Position numbers and translations under genes: made by a program
Notes under the pieces: model-generated
Seen by the model: the letters and a program-made list of their open reading frames with translations, nothing else
What the model was told of the DNA's origin: nothing
Database searches by the model: none
Assembly (NCBI GenBank): GCA_015065165.1
Contig: SVQU01000006.1
Coordinates: 19,128 to 83,127 of the forward strand
Length of the DNA: 64,000 nucleotides
Direction: 5' to 3'
DNA from: Oscillospiraceae bacterium
GTDB taxonomy: Bacteria > Bacillota > Clostridia > Oscillospirales > CAG-382
In this document: piece by piece, positions 37,101 through 64,000 of the stretch
Numbering within the stretch: the first letter of the stretch is position 1
Layout of the letters: the number at the start of each line of letters is the position of its first letter

Positions 37101-37142
37101 CGAGGTGTGGCGCAATGGTAGCGCGCTTGCTTTGGGAGCAAG
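37101..37142 (+). tRNA. 5' part of a split tRNA-Pro(UGG)
   Basis: CGAGGTG acceptor strand, GCGC/GCGC D arm, and anticodon arm CTTGC-TTTGGGA-GCAAG, then unrelated sequence with no T arm. The missing 3' part is at 45884-45916: joined at the GCAAG, the two give a complete 75-nt tRNA-Pro in which CGAGGTG pairs with CACTTCG. Non-functional as it stands. Confidence 0.85.
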
Positions 37143-37242
37143 TGATATTCCCCTACTTCACCAATTGCACAAAAGCCGAAACCCCTTGATTTCACTTGAT
37201 TTTTTGTTGTTTTATTTTTTGTGTTTTTATCAAAAATGTGAT

Positions 37243-37268
37243 TTTGACCACAATTTTGACCACAATTG
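37243..37268 (+). repeat. 26-bp GACCACAA repeat, left copy
   Basis: Two tandem TTTGACCACAA-type units. The identical 26 bases recur at 45727-45752 in the same orientation near the other end. Probable integrase or excisionase arm-binding sites. Confidence 0.75.
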
Positions 37269-37324
37269 ATTTACTTATTTATAAGCAATTTTCTACCATT
37301 ATATATTATAATTTAATAATATTT

Positions 37325-37400
37325 CGGGGTGTAGCGCAGTTGGGAGCGCGCGACATTTGGGATGTTGAGGCCGCAGGTTCGAACCCTGTCACTCCGACCA
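37325..37400 (+). tRNA. tRNA-Pro(UGG), intact, inside the element
   Basis: 76 nt with encoded CCA. Acceptor CGGGGTG/CACTCCG, D arm GCGC/GCGC, anticodon arm CGACA-TTTGGGA-TGTTG (anticodon TGG), T arm GCAGG-TTCGAAC-CCTGT. It differs from the split tRNA at many positions but reads the same codons, so it may replace it. Confidence 0.92.
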
Positions 37401-37424
37401 GAATAGCGGTTTTGACCGCATACG

Positions 37425-37456
37425 AAAGCCGCAAAGTAGGGATACTTTGCGGCTTT
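37425..37456 (+). terminator. Terminator after the intact tRNA-Pro
   Basis: Arms AAAGCCGCAAAGTA and TACTTTGCGGCTTT with a 4-nt loop, followed by TCAAG; 24 bases past the CCA. Confidence 0.8.
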
Positions 37457-37547
37457 TCAAGTCTTGGAGGTTTATATGTGCATCTCGAAATATATATTTA
37501 GCAAAATCGGATTTATCATCAAGAAAAAAACTATTCGGAGGAAAATC

Positions 37548-38663
37548 GTGAAAAAACATAACTGGGTACAAAATATAAATTACAAAAAATTTATTGCACC
37601 ATTTGAAATTAGTTCTGGTAATCAATATCTTTCCGAACTAAAGACTCTATTAGACCTTTTTGTGGACGAACTAATAAATTGCAAAGCAGAAGAAACCATA
37701 GTTTCTGTTGCAAAACTTTACAGAGACAAAATTATTAATTCAATAGAACTGTATTATCAAGGAAATATTATAGATGCCCAAAGCACTATAAATGAACTAA
37801 TTGATGATTTTAGCGATGACTCCATTGCAATTTCGCATATTAATGACAGCATCGCCTTCCCTTCCCCGCGAAAGGGGGTTAAATCTGAGGTTCAATTCTT
37901 TAGAGCAAGACTTACCGAAAATGTAACAGATTTCCCTGCAAAAGATATGTTGCACATTCCATTTTCCAAACGCGATATTGTAAAGGGTGAACGTTTTAGT
38001 ATACCTGGATTACCTTGTTTATATTTGGCTAATTCAACATATACATGTTGGATTGAAATGGGTTGTCCTGCAGATCATAAATTTAATGTATCGCCTGTTG
38101 TGTTAGACAATACTCAAAGAATTTTCAATCTAACTGTATCTATACGCGACCTAATGGATTATACAACTATCGAAAACTCTGAAAACGACAACCATGAAGA
38201 GAGCATCATCGCCTTAATCAAGCTTTTAATGTTGTCGATGGGAACATCTTTCAACGTAGCTTCAGGTAGTGATCGCAACTTCAAGGCTGAATATATACTG
38301 CCACAAATGATCATGTTAGCCTGCAAACATAGGAACCTGGATGGTGTTACATACTATTCTAAGAAAGTTACAGATGATATTTTTGCACATGTTGTAGGTG
38401 TAAATTTAGTTTTGTTTGCATCTTATAACGGTGAAAAAGAACTTTCTAATATTTGCGAACATATTGAAATTAGCGATTCTTTTAATTATTCAATGTTTAA
38501 ACAATTAATGCCGAGTTTGCTTTGCAAATCATACGATCTGCGTATATTAGATTCTCCATATATAACTAATATCGGTTCGTTCGACCGACAGTTCCCTTAT
38601 CGAGAAACACAATTTTTCGCTTTTGATCAGTATTTATTTGCAAACTGGAACCGCGGGCACTAA
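37548..38663 (+). CDS. RES domain protein (NAD+-consuming toxin/effector type)
   Basis: 371 residues from a GTG at 37548 with CGGAGG six bases upstream. A helical N-terminal domain (1-110) precedes a RES fold: FFRAR (117-121), RFSIPGLPCLYLANS (149-163) with candidate R149, CWIEM with E170, and LPQMI...LDGVTYYS...GVNLVLF (251-290) with S271, the Arg-Glu-Ser set that names the family. RES toxins degrade NAD+ and usually pair with an Xre antitoxin; none is adjacent here. A 428-residue tail-anchored protein follows 17 bases later. Composition is AT-rich, so probably acquired. Confidence 0.75.
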   Translation: MKKHNWVQNINYKKFIAPFEISSGNQYLSELKTLLDLFVDELINCKAEETIVSVAKLYRDKIINSIELYYQGNIIDAQSTINELIDDFSDDSIAISHINDSIAFPSPRKGVKSEVQFFRARLTENVTDFPAKDMLHIPFSKRDIVKGERFSIPGLPCLYLANSTYTCWIEMGCPADHKFNVSPVVLDNTQRIFNLTVSIRDLMDYTTIENSENDNHEESIIALIKLLMLSMGTSFNVASGSDRNFKAEYILPQMIMLACKHRNLDGVTYYSKKVTDDIFAHVVGVNLVLFASYNGEKELSNICEHIEISDSFNYSMFKQLMPSLLCKSYDLRILDSPYITNIGSFDRQFPYRETQFFAFDQYLFANWNRGH

Positions 38664-38680
38664 AAAGGATTGAGAATAGA

Positions 38681-39967
38681 ATGAAAAAAGAAATCAAAAA
38701 ATGTATTAAATACTATTTAAGAAATATCGATTCCGAGGCATTTCGGGAATACGTTAAAAAGTCCGAAGAAAATGGTACGAGAGTGCATCAAGAGTATATA
38801 AAAGAGAAAAAACCTCAATGGGCAAATCGCACTGATTATTTTGAGGAAAGCACTATTGCTCGGATTATCATTGGAGATGTTTTATCTAATGATGGGGTTG
38901 TTAAACTTTTAAAGAAACTTTATGCACTACCCAAAAATAAATTTAAAGTAAAAAACTATTACAAAAAGCCACCTTTAAAAAACAAGTATGATTATATACG
39001 TCTTCAGTATACCCACTCCGGAATAGGTAGATTTGCAGAAATCGAATTTTTAGATGATAAATATATCAAACGTATAGAAATCAGTTGGAGCCAAATCAAT
39101 AATTATTTTGCTTTTATAGAGTATTCTTTTTGGTTCCATAAGTGTTTGGACGAAACACTCTACGGCAATTTCATTTCTGAAAACCTGCCTAAATTGACAA
39201 AAAAAGATTATATTACTTGGTATCACATAAAGAATGACAAAGAAGATAAATACAAGGATAATTATATGGCGTTACAGCAAATGCACACTGAATTTTTCAA
39301 TGTTGTTTGCCAACACTATATAACTACCCTGTTGTATAGTGAGCAAGGATCTACTAATCTTCTATTAAACATTACATTTTTTGTGAGAGAGAAACCCATT
39401 GACATTTCGACCTTGTATATTAGTGATTTTGGGGAAGCGTTTTATAACCGAAAAGGGAATTACATTATAGTTAGTGATTTTCATGGCGATCGTCATTGTC
39501 TTTATTCTGGAAATAATAGGATTCCTAATTTTAATCCATGCGGATATATTTCTAAATACGGAAATGACTTTTACTATAAGTTTTTCGGAGAAAAAGAATT
39601 AAAGAATTTTGAATATGAATTTTCCAAATATACGAACGGAAGAACGAAAGCTAAATACAACAAAAAGATAATAAGACTTCTGAATAAAATTCAGAGTCTC
39701 TCTGATTACGAATATCCCAATTCTTCAAAATTTTACTCTGGTTTCAAAGAGTCTTGGGATTTCTATGTAGGTAACGAAACGGAAGATATCAAGAAATGGC
39801 ATGGTAATAATCTGAAAAAAATCAAAAATATTTTCGAAAAGAACTTTGAATACCTAAAGGTTCTTACCGAAATAAATTATACTCGGAGCAATCATTCGAT
39901 ATCCATTATTGCAGCTGTGATTTCTGTGGTAGCAACGATCATATCATTAGTAGCTATTTTTGTGTGA
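38681..39967 (+). CDS. Hypothetical tail-anchored partner of the RES protein
   Basis: 428 residues, family not recognised. The bulk is cytosolic, charged and aromatic-rich, and the only clear membrane segment is at the very C terminus (SISIIAAVISVVATIISLVA, about 405-425), so it should be anchored by its tail. AAAAGGATTGAG precedes the ATG. Spacing of 17 bases to the RES gene and shared AT-rich composition indicate one transcription unit. It could be the antitoxin, the sensor or the membrane anchor of a RES module; the sequence does not decide. Confidence 0.7.
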   Translation: MKKEIKKCIKYYLRNIDSEAFREYVKKSEENGTRVHQEYIKEKKPQWANRTDYFEESTIARIIIGDVLSNDGVVKLLKKLYALPKNKFKVKNYYKKPPLKNKYDYIRLQYTHSGIGRFAEIEFLDDKYIKRIEISWSQINNYFAFIEYSFWFHKCLDETLYGNFISENLPKLTKKDYITWYHIKNDKEDKYKDNYMALQQMHTEFFNVVCQHYITTLLYSEQGSTNLLLNITFFVREKPIDISTLYISDFGEAFYNRKGNYIIVSDFHGDRHCLYSGNNRIPNFNPCGYISKYGNDFYYKFFGEKELKNFEYEFSKYTNGRTKAKYNKKIIRLLNKIQSLSDYEYPNSSKFYSGFKESWDFYVGNETEDIKKWHGNNLKKIKNIFEKNFEYLKVLTEINYTRSNHSISIIAAVISVVATIISLVAIFV

Positions 39968-40008
39968 TTTTCAAAATCCTTTTCTTTGTTTACTCCGAAC
40001 TAACCATT

Positions 40009-40032
40009 GAGGGCGCCTTAATCGGCGCCCTC
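40009..40032 (+). terminator. Terminator of the RES operon, overlapping the integrase 3' end
   Basis: Arms GAGGGCGCC and GGCGCCCTC, loop TTAATC, then TTTT on the plus strand. The right arm also encodes the last integrase residues on the minus strand. Confidence 0.85.
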
Positions 40033-40581
40033 TTTTAGTTTTGCTTTTTCTTCCTCTATTTCCGCTTTCTTGATTTTTATCATTTCGTCGAGCTTTTGTT
40101 CACATTCTTCAAGCGAATGTGTGTAGACGTTACAAGCAACTCTTTTGCCTTGTGCGTTGGTGGGCGTGTATCTACCTTCCCACAAGTTTTCTCCGATTCT
40201 ATAGATTCCACCAGTTCCGCTTCTTCTTATTTTACCTTTATATGGCTTAAACTCCACTTTCACGGGAGCTTTAGAATCTTCTATTGCCGTTATTTCAATT
40301 TCACTTTCTTCTATTATGGTGTCACTTCTGCACATATGTGCATCAATTTTCATCGCTGCATTATTAAGCATTTCGTTTGTAATGTGGCTATATATATCCA
40401 ACGTTGTTGACGATGACTTATGTCCTATAATTCGGGAGAGTGTTTTTATATCCATACCGTGTTCGAGAGCCATCGTAGCGAAGGTATGACGCAAATCGTG
40501 GAATCGTATTCTCTTGCAATCTGATCTTTCCAATATCTGCTGACATTTTCTATATAAATGATACCAAACAAATACTTCCAA
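40018..40581 (-). pseudogene. Tyrosine integrase, N-terminal part missing
   Basis: About 187 residues of the C-terminal half. Catalytic RIRFHDLRHTFATMALEHG (Arg and HxxR), GHKSSSTTLDIYSH (His and the nucleophile Tyr) are intact, but the arm-binding and core domains and the first catalytic Arg are gone: upstream of the TTG at 40581 the frame meets a stop at 40603-40605. After the catalytic domain follows an AP2-like, DNA-binding segment (GTGGIYRIGENLWEGRYTPT), an extension I associate with gut Bacillota integrases. Almost certainly not active. The break at about 40565-40605 is also where sequence identity changes. Confidence 0.85.
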
Positions 40582-40850
40582 TGAATGATAATAGATATAG
40601 CATTAGTTTTAAAGAAAAAGAACATTTTACTAAACTAATCTTTGGGGTTCCCATCAAAGATGTTTGCGAAGGAAAAATTGTTTCCCCAACCATAAGAAAA
40701 TTTAACAAATCATTCGTTTTTAAAGGAAGTAATGCAATTGTTGTTATTAGTAATAACAAATATACCTTCATGCACGACAACATAAGCATCGAATTTGCAT
40801 TAAATGATGTTTTTAAAAAATTATCTAACAACACTATGCTTCAACAACAG
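40581..40850 (+). pseudogene. Unidentified ORF fragment at the rearrangement point
   Basis: About 88 residues (MNDNRYSISFKEKEHF onward) with no ribosome binding site, no recognised domain, and an end that runs into RHS sequence in another frame. It lies between the truncated integrase and the truncated RHS gene. It may be a gene fragment or an assembly artefact. Confidence 0.35.
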
Positions 40851-43800
40851 CAAATCTCTTGCTGTAGTAAGCGACTTGGATTCTGAAGCTTATGCCTGCC
40901 AAACTATTAACGTGAAGAAAGAAGATTCTACACGCCAAACCTTTACCCTTTCCGGTTGGGCAAAAGGCGAAGGCATCATTGATCGTGAACGCGAAGCGTG
41001 TGAAAAGCCCTCGTTCTGTTTGCGTGCATGTATCAACTACAAATCCGGCGAATGTGAAGAACATATTGCAGAATTTTCGCCTTGCACTGATGGTTGGCAG
41101 TTTGCTTCGGTTGAATTCGCAAAGGAAAAATTCTGCGCTGTCGAGTCGATAAAGGTTTATTGCGACTATAGCAACAACGTCGGTACTGCATACTTTGACA
41201 ATATTCAGCTTGTTTGCAACTCTATCGAAACCGAACTTTTTGCAGACGACTTTACAACCATCAGCGAAGACTACTCCGCAGACGAAGATACCGCAGAAGA
41301 TACTTTCAATCCGGGCTTTAGCACCGAAGCAGAAGAAACTGATAGTGCGCCCGAATTCGAAGAAGCAAGAGATCCTCACGGTAATCCCTTCACCGAAACC
41401 AATTTTGTAGATGGCGAATTCGGTACAATCTATCGCTCGTTTAAATACTACAACGATATGGATCATATCGGCAACGACCTCACTTGCGAAACCGACCCCA
41501 GAGGTAACGAAACCAAATATGATGTAAATACAAATACTTCCAAAAACAACGCTGTTATCGACCGTTGCGGTAATAAAACCGAATACGAATATGACAGATT
41601 CGGTGAAGTATCTAAGGTAACCAGCTTTGAAAAAATCGGCGTAGATGACGAAGGTAATCCCATCTATCATCCCCTCGCAGACGTTTCCTATGCGTATTGC
41701 GAATTCGGTCAATTAGGAATGATCTCCCGTGGCGACGGCATGAAATATAACATCGATTATGACGAATTCAATCAACTTCAGGCGATCGGTATCAAGGGTA
41801 AGCCCGAAAAGCTTGTAAAATATGATTACAAGACCGGTTCCGGCAGACTTAAATCCGTAACCTATGCAAACGGTAACGTTATGTATGCTACCTACAACAG
41901 CATTGGTCAGATGATAAGCGAAACCTGGAAAGATACTGAAGACGGCAACATTATTGCATATTATAAATATGTTTATGACGGCAGCGGTAATATCGTAAGA
42001 AGCCTTGACATAGTTTCGGGAATTGAGTATACTTATACCTACGAGGAAGGCAGAATTGTTCGTGCTACCGAAACTGTTGTTATCTATGACAGCAACTGTA
42101 TCGCGGTTTCCAGAGGAGATACAAACACCATATTCTACAGCTATAATAACGAAGGTCAGCTTGTTAAAAAGCGTGTCGTTACTTCTGATGGTGCTGAACG
42201 TATCACCTACTATGAGCACAACGATGACAACACAATCGTTAAGTTCTCCGCAGGCGGTTTGAATGCCACTGCTCACAGCAAAACTGACGGTTTCGGCAGA
42301 AAGATTTTCGACGAAGTGCAGACCGGCAGAGGCTTTGTTTCCAGACAGTTTAGTTACCACGCAGGTGCTGTAACCGACGCTCACAAAGATTCGGACAAAG
42401 TTAAGTCCTCGCCTACCACACAGCTTGTAAGCCGTATTGAGCTTTCCGACGGCAGATCCCTTTCCTATGAATACGATGCTGAAGAACGCATCACCTCTGT
42501 TGTTGAGTCTTATGCTGTTGACGGTCAGCCTGTTACCAATACCATTCTTTACACTTACGATGCACTTGGTCAGCTTCTTACCGAAACGGTTAACGGTGTT
42601 GTAGTGAATGAAATGACCTATGACAATTACGGCAACATTCTTACCAAAAACGGCAAGATTTACACCTATGGCGATTCTGTTTGGAAGGATAAGCTTACCG
42701 CAATCGATGGTCAGGCTATTACCTATGATGCACAGGGCAACCCTGTTTCTTATCTCGGCCATGATTTGACGTGGGAGAAAGGCAGACAGCTTAAATACTT
42801 TGATGGTGTTTCTTACACCTACAATGCAAACGCCATTCGTACTTCTAAAACCGTCAATGGTGCAAAGCACACCTATATCTTAGACGGCACCAAGATTCTT
42901 CGTGAACATTGGATGGAATGCGCCACACCGCACACTATTACTCCTTTGTATGATAACGAAGACTCTGTTTGCGGTATCGACTACGGTAATCATACCTTCT
43001 ATTTCTTGAAGAACCTTCAGGGCGACGTTATTGCCATCGCAGACATCGAGGGCAATGTTGTTGGTCGTTACTCCTACGATGCTTGGGGCGTACCTACCAT
43101 TACTCAAGATAGCTCCTTCACAGTATGGGAAAAAGGCGTTGAGTTATATTCGTTCAATATTGCAGAAGTTAACCCCTTCCGTTACCGTGGTTATTACTAT
43201 GATAACGAAATTGGTTTGTACTATCTCCAAAGTAGGTATTACAACCCTGTAACTGGTAGGTTTGTGAATGCGGACATTCCTGAAATAATCGTCTTACATG
43301 GTAGATATTCTTTAAATGTAAACATGTATGCATATTGCAATAACGATCCAGTTATTGGCAACGATCCTATGGGAATGCTTGATGCAGCTGGCGCCGCAAG
43401 TTGGCTGAATGCAACTGATGTATTCAACATGTATGCACAAGACCTGTATACAGCTTATGCAGCAACTTTAACTAAAATTGGATTATATATAACAGCGTTT
43501 CTTACTCCTAAAGTAAGCGCAGCTTTTTGGTGGCAACCTTGGCTTATTGCAGGCATAGTGGTCGCAGCTGTTGCAATAGTAATTGCTTCTGTTGCAATTA
43601 TATATAATGCTAAAGTAAAGGAAAGAGAAAGAGAAAGACAAAAGTACCTAACGTCTGATAAAACGCTTTCTGATGTCAAGTTAAAACTGCAGTCCGGCAA
43701 GCATTATCACTTAGCCTATATTAGCAAGCAAGGCGAGTTATATAAAACCGGAAATAAAATGACCTTTGTTCAAGCTTTAATTGCATTAGGTATAACTGGT

Positions 43801-44052
43801 GCTGTTAACAGCATTACACGTAGGTACAAATACGACAAAACCAAATCTTCCACTGCCCAACGAACTCTCGAACATAAAGGTAATAGACAATGGGGCATAT
43901 ACGCTGATACTCAATCGGCTGCAAAAGCATTAGCTGTTGTTTTGGGTTCGTCAGAAAAACCCAAAGTGCATGGTTCGGGATATTATGGCCACTATCATGA
44001 TTTTACACACACTTTCCATATATGGTATGGTGGTAAAATCATATATAAATAA
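40804..44052 (+). CDS. RHS/YD-repeat polymorphic toxin, N terminus missing
   Basis: 1082 codons open, but real RHS sequence begins near codon 16 (KSLAVVSDLDSEAYACQT) in mid-domain: no signal peptide or export domain, so the 5' part is lost. A carbohydrate-binding-like jelly-roll segment (about 20-135), a long YD-repeat shell (200-800) and the RHS core end YYLQSRYYNPVTGRF (about 807-820) are followed by a hydrophobic stretch (about 910-935) and a variable C-terminal domain ending HGSGYYGHYHDFTHTFHIWY. Composition becomes AT-rich after the core, typical of a swapped toxin tip. Toxin activity unassigned; histidine-rich end suggests a nuclease. Confidence 0.85.
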   Translation: MMFLKNYLTTLCFNNSKSLAVVSDLDSEAYACQTINVKKEDSTRQTFTLSGWAKGEGIIDREREACEKPSFCLRACINYKSGECEEHIAEFSPCTDGWQFASVEFAKEKFCAVESIKVYCDYSNNVGTAYFDNIQLVCNSIETELFADDFTTISEDYSADEDTAEDTFNPGFSTEAEETDSAPEFEEARDPHGNPFTETNFVDGEFGTIYRSFKYYNDMDHIGNDLTCETDPRGNETKYDVNTNTSKNNAVIDRCGNKTEYEYDRFGEVSKVTSFEKIGVDDEGNPIYHPLADVSYAYCEFGQLGMISRGDGMKYNIDYDEFNQLQAIGIKGKPEKLVKYDYKTGSGRLKSVTYANGNVMYATYNSIGQMISETWKDTEDGNIIAYYKYVYDGSGNIVRSLDIVSGIEYTYTYEEGRIVRATETVVIYDSNCIAVSRGDTNTIFYSYNNEGQLVKKRVVTSDGAERITYYEHNDDNTIVKFSAGGLNATAHSKTDGFGRKIFDEVQTGRGFVSRQFSYHAGAVTDAHKDSDKVKSSPTTQLVSRIELSDGRSLSYEYDAEERITSVVESYAVDGQPVTNTILYTYDALGQLLTETVNGVVVNEMTYDNYGNILTKNGKIYTYGDSVWKDKLTAIDGQAITYDAQGNPVSYLGHDLTWEKGRQLKYFDGVSYTYNANAIRTSKTVNGAKHTYILDGTKILREHWMECATPHTITPLYDNEDSVCGIDYGNHTFYFLKNLQGDVIAIADIEGNVVGRYSYDAWGVPTITQDSSFTVWEKGVELYSFNIAEVNPFRYRGYYYDNEIGLYYLQSRYYNPVTGRFVNADIPEIIVLHGRYSLNVNMYAYCNNDPVIGNDPMGMLDAAGAASWLNATDVFNMYAQDLYTAYAATLTKIGLYITAFLTPKVSAAFWWQPWLIAGIVVAAVAIVIASVAIIYNAKVKERERERQKYLTSDKTLSDVKLKLQSGKHYHLAYISKQGELYKTGNKMTFVQALIALGITGAVNSITRRYKYDKTKSSTAQRTLEHKGNRQWGIYADTQSAAKALAVVLGSSEKPKVHGSGYYGHYHDFTHTFHIWYGGKIIYK

Positions 44053-44073
44053 TCTCAAATGAGGATAATTCAT

Positions 44074-44475
44074 ATGCAATGTTATGAAATGCTTTTACCA
44101 TATTTTAGATATTATAGAGATGAAGAAACATCTGATAACTTTTCGTGGTGGTTCTGTGTTTTAGATGAAAATATATACGAAACCAATGATATATACAAAG
44201 AATTTGGTTACACTTCAATATGCGACATTTGCGATTCGGGCAAATTCATCGAATTATACAAAGTAGATATTATTGAAACCAAAAAAGTATTTTTAAAGCA
44301 GTATCATCCAAAAAGTCAAATTTTGAACATTGAACATGACGGAGAATTCGATATTGCCTTTAACTCATTTATAGAAACCAGTTCCAGTTTAGATACATGG
44401 CAGGAATATGAAAAAGCTGTATTAGAATCAGCTCTATTGAAATGGAGTTCAGATAATAATATCATAATTTATTAA
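44074..44475 (+). CDS. Candidate immunity protein for the RHS toxin
   Basis: 133 residues from the ATG at 44074, nine bases after GAGG (an ATG at 44059 has none). Soluble, acidic and aromatic-rich (MQCYEMLLPYFRYYRD), no recognised family. It starts 21 bases after the RHS toxin stop, the position of immunity genes in polymorphic toxin loci, with the same AT-rich composition as the toxin tip. The immunity role rests on position. Confidence 0.6.
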   Translation: MQCYEMLLPYFRYYRDEETSDNFSWWFCVLDENIYETNDIYKEFGYTSICDICDSGKFIELYKVDIIETKKVFLKQYHPKSQILNIEHDGEFDIAFNSFIETSSSLDTWQEYEKAVLESALLKWSSDNNIIIY

Positions 44476-44583
44476 ATTAATCTATGACACTAATAAGTTT
44501 TTAGTTTTGGTATGGGAATGATATTATGGTCATTTCGAACATTGTATATTAACGAATAATAACTCATTATTTTGACATAATAT

Positions 44584-44612
44584 TTGCAATTTTCATTCCA
44601 ATGTGATATAGT
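44584..44612 (+). promoter_or_regulatory. Promoter of the lipoprotein gene
   Basis: TTGCAA (44584-44589), 17-bp spacer, TATAGT (44607-44612). The -10 box lies inside the left arm of the palindrome at 44601-44642. Confidence 0.6.
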
Positions 44613-44642
44613 GTTTTCATAGTAGAACACACTATATCACAT
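44601..44642. promoter_or_regulatory. Perfect 14-bp inverted repeat, likely operator
   Basis: Arms ATGTGATATAGTGT (44601-44614) and ACACTATATCACAT (44629-44642), 14-base spacer, covering the -10 box and ending just before the lipoprotein ribosome binding site (GGGGGA). A repressor site or an RNA hairpin at the leader. GTGATATAGTGTTTT also occurs at the promoter of the MATE gene near 54260, where it is only one half. Confidence 0.65.
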
Positions 44643-44655
44643 TCGGGGGATTTCT

Positions 44656-45042
44656 ATGAAAATCAAAACTATTGCTTTGTTACTTGTTGCGGTATTATGC
44701 TTTTCTTTAACTGCGTGCGGCGAAAGTGAAGCTAAACGTCCAATTGATTACCCAAACAGCAAATGGTCTTGCGATGTTGCCAGTATCACTTTTTCGGTAT
44801 CGGATGATGGAAAAATCATCGATGCAACTATGGTAGATAAAGACGACAACACGTTGCCGATTTCAATTGTTTTTTCTGATACCGATGAAAACAAGGTAAC
44901 CATAACCAATGCTGATGAAACCGAAACATATCTTTCCGGCACTTTTACATCCAGCAAAGACAAGTTCGTGATAACAGTAACCGATATTTACAATACGAAT
45001 CTTAGTATTTCTTCCAGAAGTTTGATATTCAAACGTTCATAA
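44656..45042 (+). CDS. Small lipoprotein
   Basis: 128 residues. Signal peptide MKIKTIALLLVAVLCFSLTACG with lipobox LTAC (Cys about 21). The mature part is a single beta-rich domain with repeated T/I/V strands (ITFSVSDDGKIIDATMVDKD), a common pattern of secreted Bacillota lipoproteins of unknown role. It is flanked by an operator-like palindrome and a strong terminator, so it is a single regulated transcript within the element. Confidence 0.75.
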   Translation: MKIKTIALLLVAVLCFSLTACGESEAKRPIDYPNSKWSCDVASITFSVSDDGKIIDATMVDKDDNTLPISIVFSDTDENKVTITNADETETYLSGTFTSSKDKFVITVTDIYNTNLSISSRSLIFKRS

Positions 45043-45049
45043 CTCAAAA

Positions 45050-45085
45050 AAGAACCATCTGTTCAATCTCGAACAGATGGTTCTT
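45050..45085 (+). terminator. Terminator of the lipoprotein gene
   Basis: Arms AAGAACCATCTGTTC and GAACAGATGGTTCTT, loop AATCTC, then ATTATTTTT. Confidence 0.92.
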
Positions 45086-45193
45086 ATTATTTTTACCGCA
45101 TAGTTTTAATATTTGAATGATACTTATTATACTCTTGAAATTTCACAAATAAATGTTATAATATTATAAATCGACGACAATACTGAGGTTCTT

Positions 45194-45682
45194 ATGAAAG
45201 TTTCTGAATTAAGGCTTAATGATATAAAAGAAGTTAACGGTTCTATTAAATCATTAAAAACCAAAGAAATTATCAATAAAATAACGCTGAGTTTTGATAT
45301 TTCTTCAAGAAAGAAACTTGCCAAGTTATTTATTTGCAATATTGTTACACCAGATGTGCAAAATTTGTGTATCGAACAATTATCTATAGAACAATCCGGG
45401 AACGAACTATTAACCAGAGGTCAATCTTCTTATGTCGATACCAAAACAGGATTTGTTTTATTTCCTCAAAGAACTTCCCCGCCCCACTTCGAAGCAACAT
45501 TTCAAGCTAAAACGGCATCAACTACAGATACACAACGCTGTTACGATATAGAAATGAATTTCGGCGATTTTTCATTCGACTTTTCAACCTCAGAAAAAAT
45601 CGAACATGCCGATAAAATAATCTATAAAAATGTAAACTTGCTGATTCACCCTAGCGACAATATAGTAAAGGTTTTGGAATAA
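45194..45682 (+). CDS. Hypothetical protein (162 aa), last gene of the element
   Basis: Not recognised. Soluble, no signal or membrane segment; helical N terminus then beta-rich with RTSPPHFEATFQAK in the middle. GAGG precedes the ATG. It stands alone between the lipoprotein terminator and the right arm repeat, in AT-rich sequence. It could be an accessory or immunity-type protein; no evidence beyond location. Confidence 0.55.
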   Translation: MKVSELRLNDIKEVNGSIKSLKTKEIINKITLSFDISSRKKLAKLFICNIVTPDVQNLCIEQLSIEQSGNELLTRGQSSYVDTKTGFVLFPQRTSPPHFEATFQAKTASTTDTQRCYDIEMNFGDFSFDFSTSEKIEHADKIIYKNVNLLIHPSDNIVKVLE

Positions 45683-45726
45683 GTTTCTTAACCATGTGTA
45701 TCCATTATATGTAATTTTGATTTTTG

Positions 45727-45752
45727 TTTGACCACAATTTTGACCACAATTG
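45727..45752 (+). repeat. 26-bp GACCACAA repeat, right copy
   Basis: Identical to 37243-37268, same orientation, 117 bases before the right core. Confidence 0.75.
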
Positions 45753-45869
45753 TAACCCGAACAGAAAAAACAAACGGAATATATGTTTCAAAAATGCGAA
45801 TTTTTGGCTGGAAAACATAACGAAAAGAGCCAAAATAATGCTTTTTTACCCAAAAAATGTTCTCGGAGC

Positions 45870-45916
45870 GCTTTGGGAGCAAGATGCTGCAGGTTCGAGT
45901 CCTGTCACTTCGACCA
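45870..45916 (+). tRNA. 3' part of the split tRNA-Pro(UGG)
   Basis: Core GCTTTGGGAGCAAG, variable loop ATGCT, T arm GCAGG-TTCGAGT-CCTGT, acceptor strand CACTTCG, discriminator A and encoded CCA. Upstream of the core there is no D arm or acceptor 5' strand. It completes the half at 37101-37142. Confidence 0.85.
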
Positions 45917-47521: not shown

Positions 47522-47583
47522 TTTCTGTTGTATAGACTTTTAAGTTAGGTACTTCTTTGAGGTATCAAATTGACAGAGGGCTA
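47522..47583 (+). repeat. 62-bp direct repeat, copy 1
   Basis: Matches 49204-49265 with two mismatches (TTTCTGTTGTATA at the start, TTGACAGAGGGCTA at the end). Here the sequence diverges right after GGGCTA and lacks the hairpin present at copy 2. Confidence 0.8.
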
Positions 47584-49203: not shown

Positions 49204-49292
49204 TTTCTGTTGTATAAACTTTTAAGTTAGGTACTTATTTGAGGTATCAAATTGACAGAGGGCTACTGACACCTAATGGGCGCAGTAGCCCC
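49204..49292 (+). repeat. 62-bp direct repeat, copy 2, with terminator hairpin
   Basis: 49204-49265 repeats 47522-47583 with two mismatches. It continues into a hairpin, GGGCTACTG (49261 on) pairing with CAGTAGCCC, then CTTGTTG, which probably acts as the terminator of this cluster. Confidence 0.8.
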
Positions 49293-58931: not shown

Positions 58932-58975
58932 AAAAAGAAACGACAACCTTCTGTCGAAAATTGTCGTTTCTTTTT
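58932..58975. terminator. Terminator between DUF6512 and tRNA-Leu
   Basis: Arms AAAAAGAAACGACAA and TTGTCGTTTCTTTTT. It directly abuts the tRNA-Leu 3' end and can end transcription from both sides. A near copy of the core (ACGACAA...TTGTCGT) closes the window at 63963-63998. Confidence 0.8.
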
Positions 58976-60718: not shown

Positions 60719-60746
60719 TTTTTGTGTAGTTATATGGGAGTGAAAG

Positions 60747-61107
60747 CGGAACGTCGAGGACGCCGTTCCCTACACGGTTATTGGGCGAGAACGGGCGATT
60801 CGTGAATCGCCCCTACGGCTCGGGATGACAGGACGGGGAGGGTTCGCGGATGACCCGTTTTTTTCAAGAATTGTAGGGACAGGCGTCCTCGACTGTCCGT
60901 AAAAACGGCGGGAGTAGAACCCCCGCCCTACGGTGGAATCGGTGTGGTATCGCGTTAAGGTGAGATTTTTACGTATAGGTTACATTACGGGCGGTCGAGG
61001 ATGGCATTCACTACAGGGATGTTGGGTGAAAACGGAACGTCGGGGACGCCGTTCCCTACACGGTTATTAGGCGAGAACGGGCGATTCGTGAATCGCCCCT
61101 ACGGCTC
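60747..61107. repeat. Palindromic intergenic repeat cluster with a 75-bp direct duplication
   Basis: 60747-60821 and 61033-61107 match over 75 bases with two mismatches. Each holds two hairpins (GGAACGTC...GACGCCGTTCC and GGGCGATTCGTGAATCGCCC), each closed by CCTACG or CCTACA. Between them lie further hairpins of the same style (GGACAGGCGTCC...ACTGTCC, GGCGGGAGTAGAACCCCCGCC). No open frame is convincing. The units resemble those at 27942-28010, so this is a family of small non-autonomous repeats. Confidence 0.85.
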
Positions 61108-63779: not shown

Positions 63780-64000
63780 TCGTTTTTTAGTGATATTCCG
63801 ACTTCGTCGGAGTGATATTACTTGCTTTGCTCGTAGTGATATTGCTCCACTTCGTTCCGCAGTGATATTATATTCGCCATTAACTGCCGAAGGCAATATC
63901 ACTCGGCTTTAGCCGAATACCACTGCGAAGCAATATAACTCGCTGTAAGGCGAATATAACTGAAAACGACAAGTTTCTGTCGAAACTTGTCGTTTTCTGG
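63780..64000. repeat. Array of short GTGATATT hairpin repeats
   Basis: Successive short palindromes (CCGACTTCGTCGG, GGCTTTAGCC, CGCTGTAAGGCG, TGCCGAAGGCA) are joined by AGTGATATT or its complement AATATCACT and relatives. At least seven junctions lie between 63789 and 63955. It ends with the hairpin ACGACAAG...CTTGTCGT. No coding sequence is evident in this gap. Confidence 0.75.

What the first reader, a model, noticed from the sequence alone, without database searches (positions are those of the whole stretch)
37548..39967. RES-domain effector paired with a tail-anchored protein instead of an Xre antitoxin
Seen: a RES fold with R149, E170 and S271 in the right order and an unusual 110-residue helical N-terminal domain, then 17 bp later an unrecognised 428-residue protein with a single C-terminal membrane helix. 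Known: RES toxins consume NAD+ and normally pair with an upstream Xre antitoxin. Inference: this could be an uncharacterised NAD-depleting defence or toxin module with a membrane-located partner. Its place in an integrated element by a tRNA is a common place for defence genes.
Basis: partly seen in the sequence, partly recalled or inferred. Interest (0 to 1): 0.7.

Follow-up and report, generated by a model that had tools for sequence, protein, structure and literature searches.

The report
Stand-alone RES toxin on tRNA-integrated island
A gene for a predicted NAD-destroying enzyme of a little-studied, phage-carried RES subfamily sits on a small mobile island in a bacterial tRNA gene without any recognisable antitoxin; the unusual membrane-tailed protein encoded next to it is found without it in every relative I could find, so it looks like separate cargo and not a dedicated partner.

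Summary
Window 37548-38663 encodes a RES-domain protein (PF08808, above its cut-off) with R149, E170 and S271, all invariant in an 11-sequence alignment, and a helical N-terminal domain. The next gene, 17 bp on, encodes a 428-residue protein of no known family ending in one hydrophobic helix.

The pairing is not conserved. None of the four closest RES relatives (43-53% identity) shows the second gene next to it (one sits at a contig edge). None of the three relatives of the second protein lies next to RES; all lie near a tyrosine integrase. No Xre_MbcA_ParS_C antitoxin domain was found in this genome or in six other genomes that carry the subfamily.

The RES protein belongs to phage family phrog_7835 (function unknown). 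Relatives sit inside two BREX clusters, beside a CBASS cassette, next to the integrase of P2-like phages, and in SPbeta (yopC).

Best reading: a stand-alone, NAD-consuming, abortive-type defence gene, with the tail-anchored gene as separate cargo. Both lie on an 8.7-kb island that split a proline tRNA gene and carries the only intact tRNA-Pro(UGG) found in the assembly. Chemistry and defence are inferred, not shown.

The parts
37101..37142 (+). attL: 5' half of the host tRNA-Pro(TGG) gene, cut in the anticodon loop
   Evidence: Joining 37142 to 45884 restores a complete tRNA-Pro(tgg) found by ARAGORN; sequence
37129..37142 (+). 14-bp att core GCTTTGGGAGCAAG, left copy
   Evidence: only two copies in the window, 37129 and 45870
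37243..37268 (+). 26-bp perfect direct repeat near the left end of the island, possible integrase arm-type site
   Evidence: family D5
37325..37400 (+). intact tRNA-Pro(TGG) carried inside the island
   Evidence: the only intact TGG proline tRNA found in the assembly
37537..37541 (+). GGAGG ribosome-binding site of the RES gene
   Evidence: sequence
37548..38663 (+). RES-domain protein, 371 aa, member of phrog_7835
   Evidence: Pfam RES E 1.2e-5; phrog_7835 E 4.2e-39 over residues 15-305
37548..37883 (+). N-terminal helical domain, about residues 1-112
   Evidence: AlphaFold2 model, pLDDT mostly 86-97 over residues 20-90; no Pfam domain
37992..37994 (+). R149 of the RES triad
38055..38057 (+). 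E170 of the RES triad
38358..38360 (+). S271 of the RES triad
38681..39967 (+). 428-aa tail-anchored protein of unknown family
   Evidence: three relatives at 46-53% identity
39905..39964 (+). single C-terminal hydrophobic helix, residues 409-428
   Evidence: hydropathy 2.91 over 19 residues, conserved in 4 of 4 members
40009..40032 (+). intrinsic terminator after the tail-anchored gene
   Evidence: 9-bp stem, 8 GC pairs
40018..40581 (-). C-terminal fragment (187 aa) of a tyrosine integrase; N-terminal part missing
   Evidence: Pfam Phage_integrase positions 112-170 of 172
40804..44052 (+). RHS-repeat protein, 1082 aa, within the island
   Evidence: Pfam RHS_repeat E 1.7e-19
45727..45752 (+). 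26-bp perfect direct repeat near the right end of the island
   Evidence: family D5
45870..45916 (+). attR: 14-bp core and 3' half of the split tRNA-Pro gene

Best explanation
The RES protein is a stand-alone, NAD-consuming effector of a mobile-element-borne RES subfamily (phrog_7835): helical N-terminal domain, then RES, then a short C-terminal region. It has no dedicated antitoxin. The N-terminal domain most likely holds the enzyme inactive and releases it on a cue from infection or from another element; the RES domain then destroys NAD+ (phosphorolysis or hydrolysis), so the cell stops growing before the invader spreads. The tail-anchored protein is a separate cargo gene that travels next to integrases and shares a terminator with RES here; it is a candidate defence or superinfection-exclusion protein of its own. 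Both were brought by an 8.7-kb island that integrated into the anticodon loop of a tRNA-Pro gene. Shown: domain, conserved triad, island ends, lack of canonical antitoxin, lack of conserved pairing, recurrent defence and prophage contexts. Inferred: NAD chemistry in this protein, autoinhibition by the N-terminal domain, trigger, phage protection.
For: RES domain and invariant R-E-S triad. Relatives of the same architecture lie inside two BREX clusters (PglX, BrxC and PglZ confirmed by PADLOC profiles), beside a CBASS SMODS plus S_4TM pair, near a NERD-domain gene and a helicase-like ORF on a viral contig, directly after the integrase in P2-like prophages, and in SPbeta as yopC. 15-kb stretches taken elsewhere from carrier genomes gave 6 PADLOC families at 1e-20 against 110 around RES, though BREX redundancy inflates the latter. 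No PF09722 antitoxin domain in 7 carrier genomes. No relative of the tail-anchored protein lies by RES. GC of RES 34.1% and tail-anchored gene 30.7% against 41.5% for the window. [quoted passage not shown]
Against: No activity data. The predicted fold found no solved RES structure by Foldseek, and the A6 profile found none by sequence; the model is only moderate in the RES part (mean pLDDT 67.8). Some relatives have an adjacent HTH gene (SPbeta yopB, G091, G356, Priestia), so part of the subfamily could be ordinary regulated toxin-antitoxin. Two carrier loci (G850, and G808 with a broken RES) showed no evident defence genes nearby. Only a handful of independent contexts are clearly defence or prophage-like.
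Confidence: 0.5

Rival explanations
1. The two genes form a true two-gene system: the tail-anchored protein holds the RES enzyme at the membrane, inhibits it or senses infection there, and releases it.
For: Same strand, 17 bp apart, a single terminator after the second gene; no other antitoxin in the genome; both have low GC, consistent with joint acquisition.
Against: None of the four closest RES relatives (G035, G121, G091, viral L036) shows the tail-anchored gene beside it; for G091 the downstream side is cut by the contig end. All three relatives of the tail-anchored protein lack RES as a neighbour. In Streptococcus it stands alone after an integrase, and in G431 it follows a different two-helix membrane protein.
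Confidence: 0.12
2. The RES protein is a plain selfish or addiction toxin of the island, kept quiet by a non-Xre regulator or by low expression, with no role against phages.
For: RES toxins are known mostly as TA components; some relatives carry a small HTH gene next door. Several relatives are broken into fragments, as expected of a costly gene.
Against: No antitoxin gene is adjacent here or in the P2-like and BREX loci, and addiction needs one. Repeated placement inside BREX clusters and in phages is better explained by defence.
Confidence: 0.25
3. The RES protein is a decayed or inactive remnant with no present function, like the integrase fragment beside it.
For: The island is partly degraded: truncated integrase and a left-end tRNA chimera that ARAGORN does not call.
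Against: Full-length ORF with good ribosome-binding site, intact triad and no stop; 53% identity to an independent full-length relative.
Confidence: 0.1

Closest known systems
phrog_7835 (phage protein family of unknown function; matches SPbeta YopC-type proteins and the integrase-adjacent gene of P2-like phages)
   Same: Same domain order; match E 4.2e-39 over residues 15-305 of the window protein
   Different: Members found here are in phages of Bacillus and enterobacteria; the window copy is on a small tRNA island and is followed by an unrelated tail-anchored gene
RES-Xre toxin-antitoxin systems (NatT, MbcT, ParT, RES-Pp)
   Same: RES domain with R-E-S residues in order
   Different: No Xre_MbcA_ParS_C antitoxin domain in the genome; extra helical N-terminal domain; about 370-450 residues; no PDB RES chain found by profile or fold search
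HEPN/RES-NTD1 plus RES fusions (PMC3710099)
   Same: About 100-residue mostly helical N-terminal domain fused to RES, proposed in conflict systems
   Different: No match to that Pfam N-terminal domain in any of 12 members at E up to 1
NAD-depleting abortive immunity (TIR and SIR2 effectors, e.g. DSR2, Thoeris)
   Same: Predicted outcome: NAD+ loss and growth arrest
   Different: Unrelated catalytic domain; no RES system had been tied to immunity according to PMC11535050

Membership tests
RES domain (PF08808) | profile match over the curated cut-off | tested here: met
   25.8 bits against 23.2, E 1.2e-5; 11 of 12 family members match at E up to 1
RES domain (PF08808) | R, E and S catalytic residues in order | tested here: met
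   R149, E170, S271 invariant in 11 sequences
RES domain (PF08808) | fold similar to solved RES toxins | tested here: inconclusive
   Foldseek against PDB found nothing significant; RES part of the model is of low to moderate confidence
RES domain (PF08808) | consumes NAD+ | not testable with these tools
   needs enzyme assay
RES-Xre toxin-antitoxin | Xre antitoxin with C-terminal toxin-binding domain (PF09722), normally adjacent | tested here: not met
   0 of 7 carrier genomes, own genome included, hold a match
HEPN/RES-NTD1 fusion | N-terminal domain matches the HEPN/RES N-terminal domain 1 profile | tested here: inconclusive
   no such match at E up to 1 in 12 members, but only single-sequence scans were possible and such domains diverge fast
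phrog_7835 | profile match over N-terminal and RES regions | tested here: met
   E 4.2e-39, residues 15-305
Known anti-phage defence protein (PADLOC) | profile match | tested here: not met
   neither protein matches at E up to 1
   0 of 4 closest RES relatives and 0 of 3 tail-anchored relatives show the pair; one RES locus is at a contig end

The most novel reading that the evidence does not exclude
RES and the tail-anchored protein act together in this lineage as a membrane-sited, antitoxin-free NAD-depleting immune system, in which an island has joined two otherwise independent integrase-linked defence genes into one operon.
Probability: 0.1. Interest if true: 0.7.

Novelty: new variant of a known kind. 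Interest (0 to 1): 0.45.

Why it matters
RES enzymes are widespread, yet none had been tied to phage immunity according to a 2024 study (PMC11535050), although computational work predicts such a role (PMC9503650). The subfamily here lacks the usual antitoxin, has its own helical N-terminal domain, and recurs inside BREX and CBASS loci and at the integrase end of P2-like phages. That makes a simple question testable: is RES a third class of NAD-destroying immune effector beside TIR and SIR2? Ready-made test copies exist in SPbeta (yopC) and P2-like prophages. The tail-anchored family is undescribed in the libraries searched and also clings to integrases.

Tried and rejected
Structure of the tail-anchored protein: the model failed (mean pLDDT 36.2 with 3 sequences), so no fold claim is made. 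Foldseek of the RES model against PDB and BFVD: nothing significant. Sequence search of PDB with each protein and with the RES profile: no RES chain; the top profile matches are chance. Viral-contig scans for the tail-anchored protein and plasmid and phage searches: none. Two weak genome search matches to it (G522, G302) lie over unrelated genes and were dropped. Empty-site comparison with same-genus genomes: similarity stops at the topoisomerase gene, so no occupied/empty pair was obtained; the island ends rest on the split tRNA instead. The idea that the tail-anchored protein is the replacement antitoxin was rejected as the main reading because it is absent from the relatives of RES.

Full report
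OBSERVATION. The RES gene starts at GTG 37548, 6 bases after GGAGG, and ends at 38663; the next gene starts at ATG 38681, 17 bp later, and ends at 39967. A strong terminator lies at 40009-40032. Protein 1 matches Pfam RES above the curated cut-off (E 1.2e-5, residues 136-291). R149, E170 and S271 are correctly numbered. In an alignment with ten relatives from viral contigs (22-44% identity) all three are invariant, as are G154, Y159, C167 and W168. The N-terminal part is a confident helical domain in the model. Protein 2 has no match in Pfam, NCBIfam, PADLOC, PHROGs or the PDB sequences. Its only strongly hydrophobic stretch is residues 409-427, leaving a one-residue tail, and this holds in all four family members.

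ISLAND. A 14-bp core, GCTTTGGGAGCAAG, occurs at 37129 and 45870 only. To its left stands the 5' half of a tRNA-Pro gene, to the right of the second copy the 3' half; joining the two flanks gives a complete tRNA-Pro(tgg) by ARAGORN. A perfect 26-bp repeat lies inside each end (37243 and 45727). So an 8.74-kb element entered the anticodon loop of a tRNA-Pro gene. It carries an intact tRNA-Pro(TGG) at 37325-37400, the RES gene, the tail-anchored gene, a C-terminal fragment of a tyrosine integrase (40018-40581, minus strand), an RHS-repeat protein (40804-44052) and small ORFs. The assembly has 37 tRNA matches; the other proline tRNAs have anticodons CGG and GGG, so the intact TGG copy found is the island's own. 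GC is 34.1% (RES) and 30.7% (tail-anchored) against 41.5% for the window.

IS THE PAIR CONSERVED? No. Among 394 genomes of the order, 10 (the own genome included) have a RES relative by single-sequence search. The closest are G035 (53%), G121 (45%) and G091 (44%); a viral contig, L036, adds one at 43%. In G035 the gene beyond RES is a convergent UvrD-like helicase; in G121 a gap and then other genes; in L036 a helicase-like ORF; in G091 the contig ends just after RES. None shows the tail-anchored gene. In the other direction, searches of 99, 391, 394 and 359 genomes found one relative of the tail-anchored protein outside the own genome (G431, 53%), and a scan of genome contigs found two more, in Streptococcus (46-47%). 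In G431 the gene directly upstream is a different, two-helix membrane protein. In both Streptococcus loci it follows a tyrosine integrase, or its C-terminal remnant, by about 80 bp. In G431 a tyrosine integrase lies about 2 kb away; in the window an integrase fragment lies 50 bp away. So the constant companion of this family, four times in four, is an integrase, not RES.

NO XRE. A search for the toxin-binding domain of Xre antitoxins (PF09722) gave no match in the window's genome or in six other genomes that carry the RES subfamily; a control genome showed that the search works. The window genome has one RES gene.

WHAT THE RES PROTEIN IS. It belongs to phrog_7835, unknown function (E 4.2e-39, residues 15-305), a family that also takes in the SPbeta YopC-like and P2-like phage proteins. 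Contexts seen: between pglX and pglZ in BREX clusters of G178 and G403 (PADLOC confirms PglX, BrxC and PglZ); beside SMODS (E 2.8e-10) and S_4TM (E 7.8e-45), a CBASS pair, in G035; directly after the integrase of Escherichia phage Cartapus and of many P2-like prophage contigs, one allele being present in 11 of 5,426 complete E. coli genomes as a 'hypothetical protein'; SPbeta yopC after the HTH gene yopB; Priestia plasmids. A rough control with 15-kb stretches elsewhere in carrier genomes gave 6 PADLOC families at 1e-20 against 110 around RES; most of the listed latter are redundant BREX models, so the contrast rests on few loci. G850 lies among sugar-transport genes. Several copies look broken (G212, G127, G178, G403, G808, and viral L057), which fits a costly gene, though assembly errors cannot be excluded.

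MECHANISM. From published work, RES toxins consume NAD+; [quoted passage not shown] NatT has a flap through which its antitoxin controls it (PMC11535050). With no antitoxin here, control most simply lies in the N-terminal helical domain; this is inference. A helical N-terminal domain on RES has a precedent, HEPN/RES-NTD1 (PMC3710099), but no member matches that Pfam domain at E up to 1. A 2024 study states that no RES TA system had been implicated in immunity (PMC11535050), while a 2022 survey proposes that prokaryotic immunity deploys RES and that phage RES toxins might block superinfection (PMC9503650).

LIMITS. No structure support: the RES model is moderate (mean pLDDT 67.8, pTM 0.74) and finds no solved RES fold; the tail-anchored model failed. 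The tail-anchored family has four members in hand. Papers were searched only in the open library, so subscription-only reports of RES defence may exist.

VERDICT. Observation confirmed; the 'module' reading is not supported by relatives; the NAD-effector and defence reading of RES alone is the better hypothesis, as a new variant of a known kind.

Noticed in passing
window 37101-37142, 37325-37400, 45870-45916: The island split a tRNA-Pro(UGG) gene in the anticodon loop and carries its own intact tRNA-Pro(UGG), the only intact UGG proline tRNA found in the assembly; the host may depend on the island for it.
   Followed up: partly
window 37143-37165: At the left end the element supplies 'attcccctacttcacca', which looks like a tRNA 3' end lacking half of the T arm; Rfam still scores 37101-37189 as a weak tRNA (31.3 bits). 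Possibly a decayed restored tRNA.
   Followed up: no
window 40804-44052: RHS-repeat protein inside the island with small following ORFs of no known family (44059-45682), perhaps immunity genes.
   Followed up: no
window 47522-47583 and 49204-49265: 62-nt repeat at 97% identity 1.7 kb apart beside small ORFs to the right of the island; looks like a duplicated unit.
   Followed up: no
window 60740-60821 and 61026-61107: 82-nt direct repeat at 96% identity.
   Followed up: no
window 58938-58969 and 63964-63995: 32-nt near-palindromic repeat (AAACGACAA...TTGTCGTTT) in two copies.
   Followed up: no
L024 6201-7070 and L025 7493-8530: RES gene between pglX and pglZ in BREX clusters of two genomes; a possible accessory BREX gene not known to me. 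Both copies look split.
   Followed up: partly
L019 6644-10015: RES gene next to a CBASS SMODS synthase and an S_4TM effector, with a 75-aa ORF (MATYKQIQEY...) between them.
   Followed up: partly
L030 4332-6504: Relative of the tail-anchored protein 8 bp after a 286-aa protein with two N-terminal hydrophobic helices, near a DUF262-like ORF, a methyltransferase-like ORF and a tyrosine integrase.
   Followed up: no
L021 1552-2863: A DUF3990 protein (ADP-ribosyltransferase-like by my own knowledge) and an HTH gene directly before a RES gene of the same subfamily.
   Followed up: no
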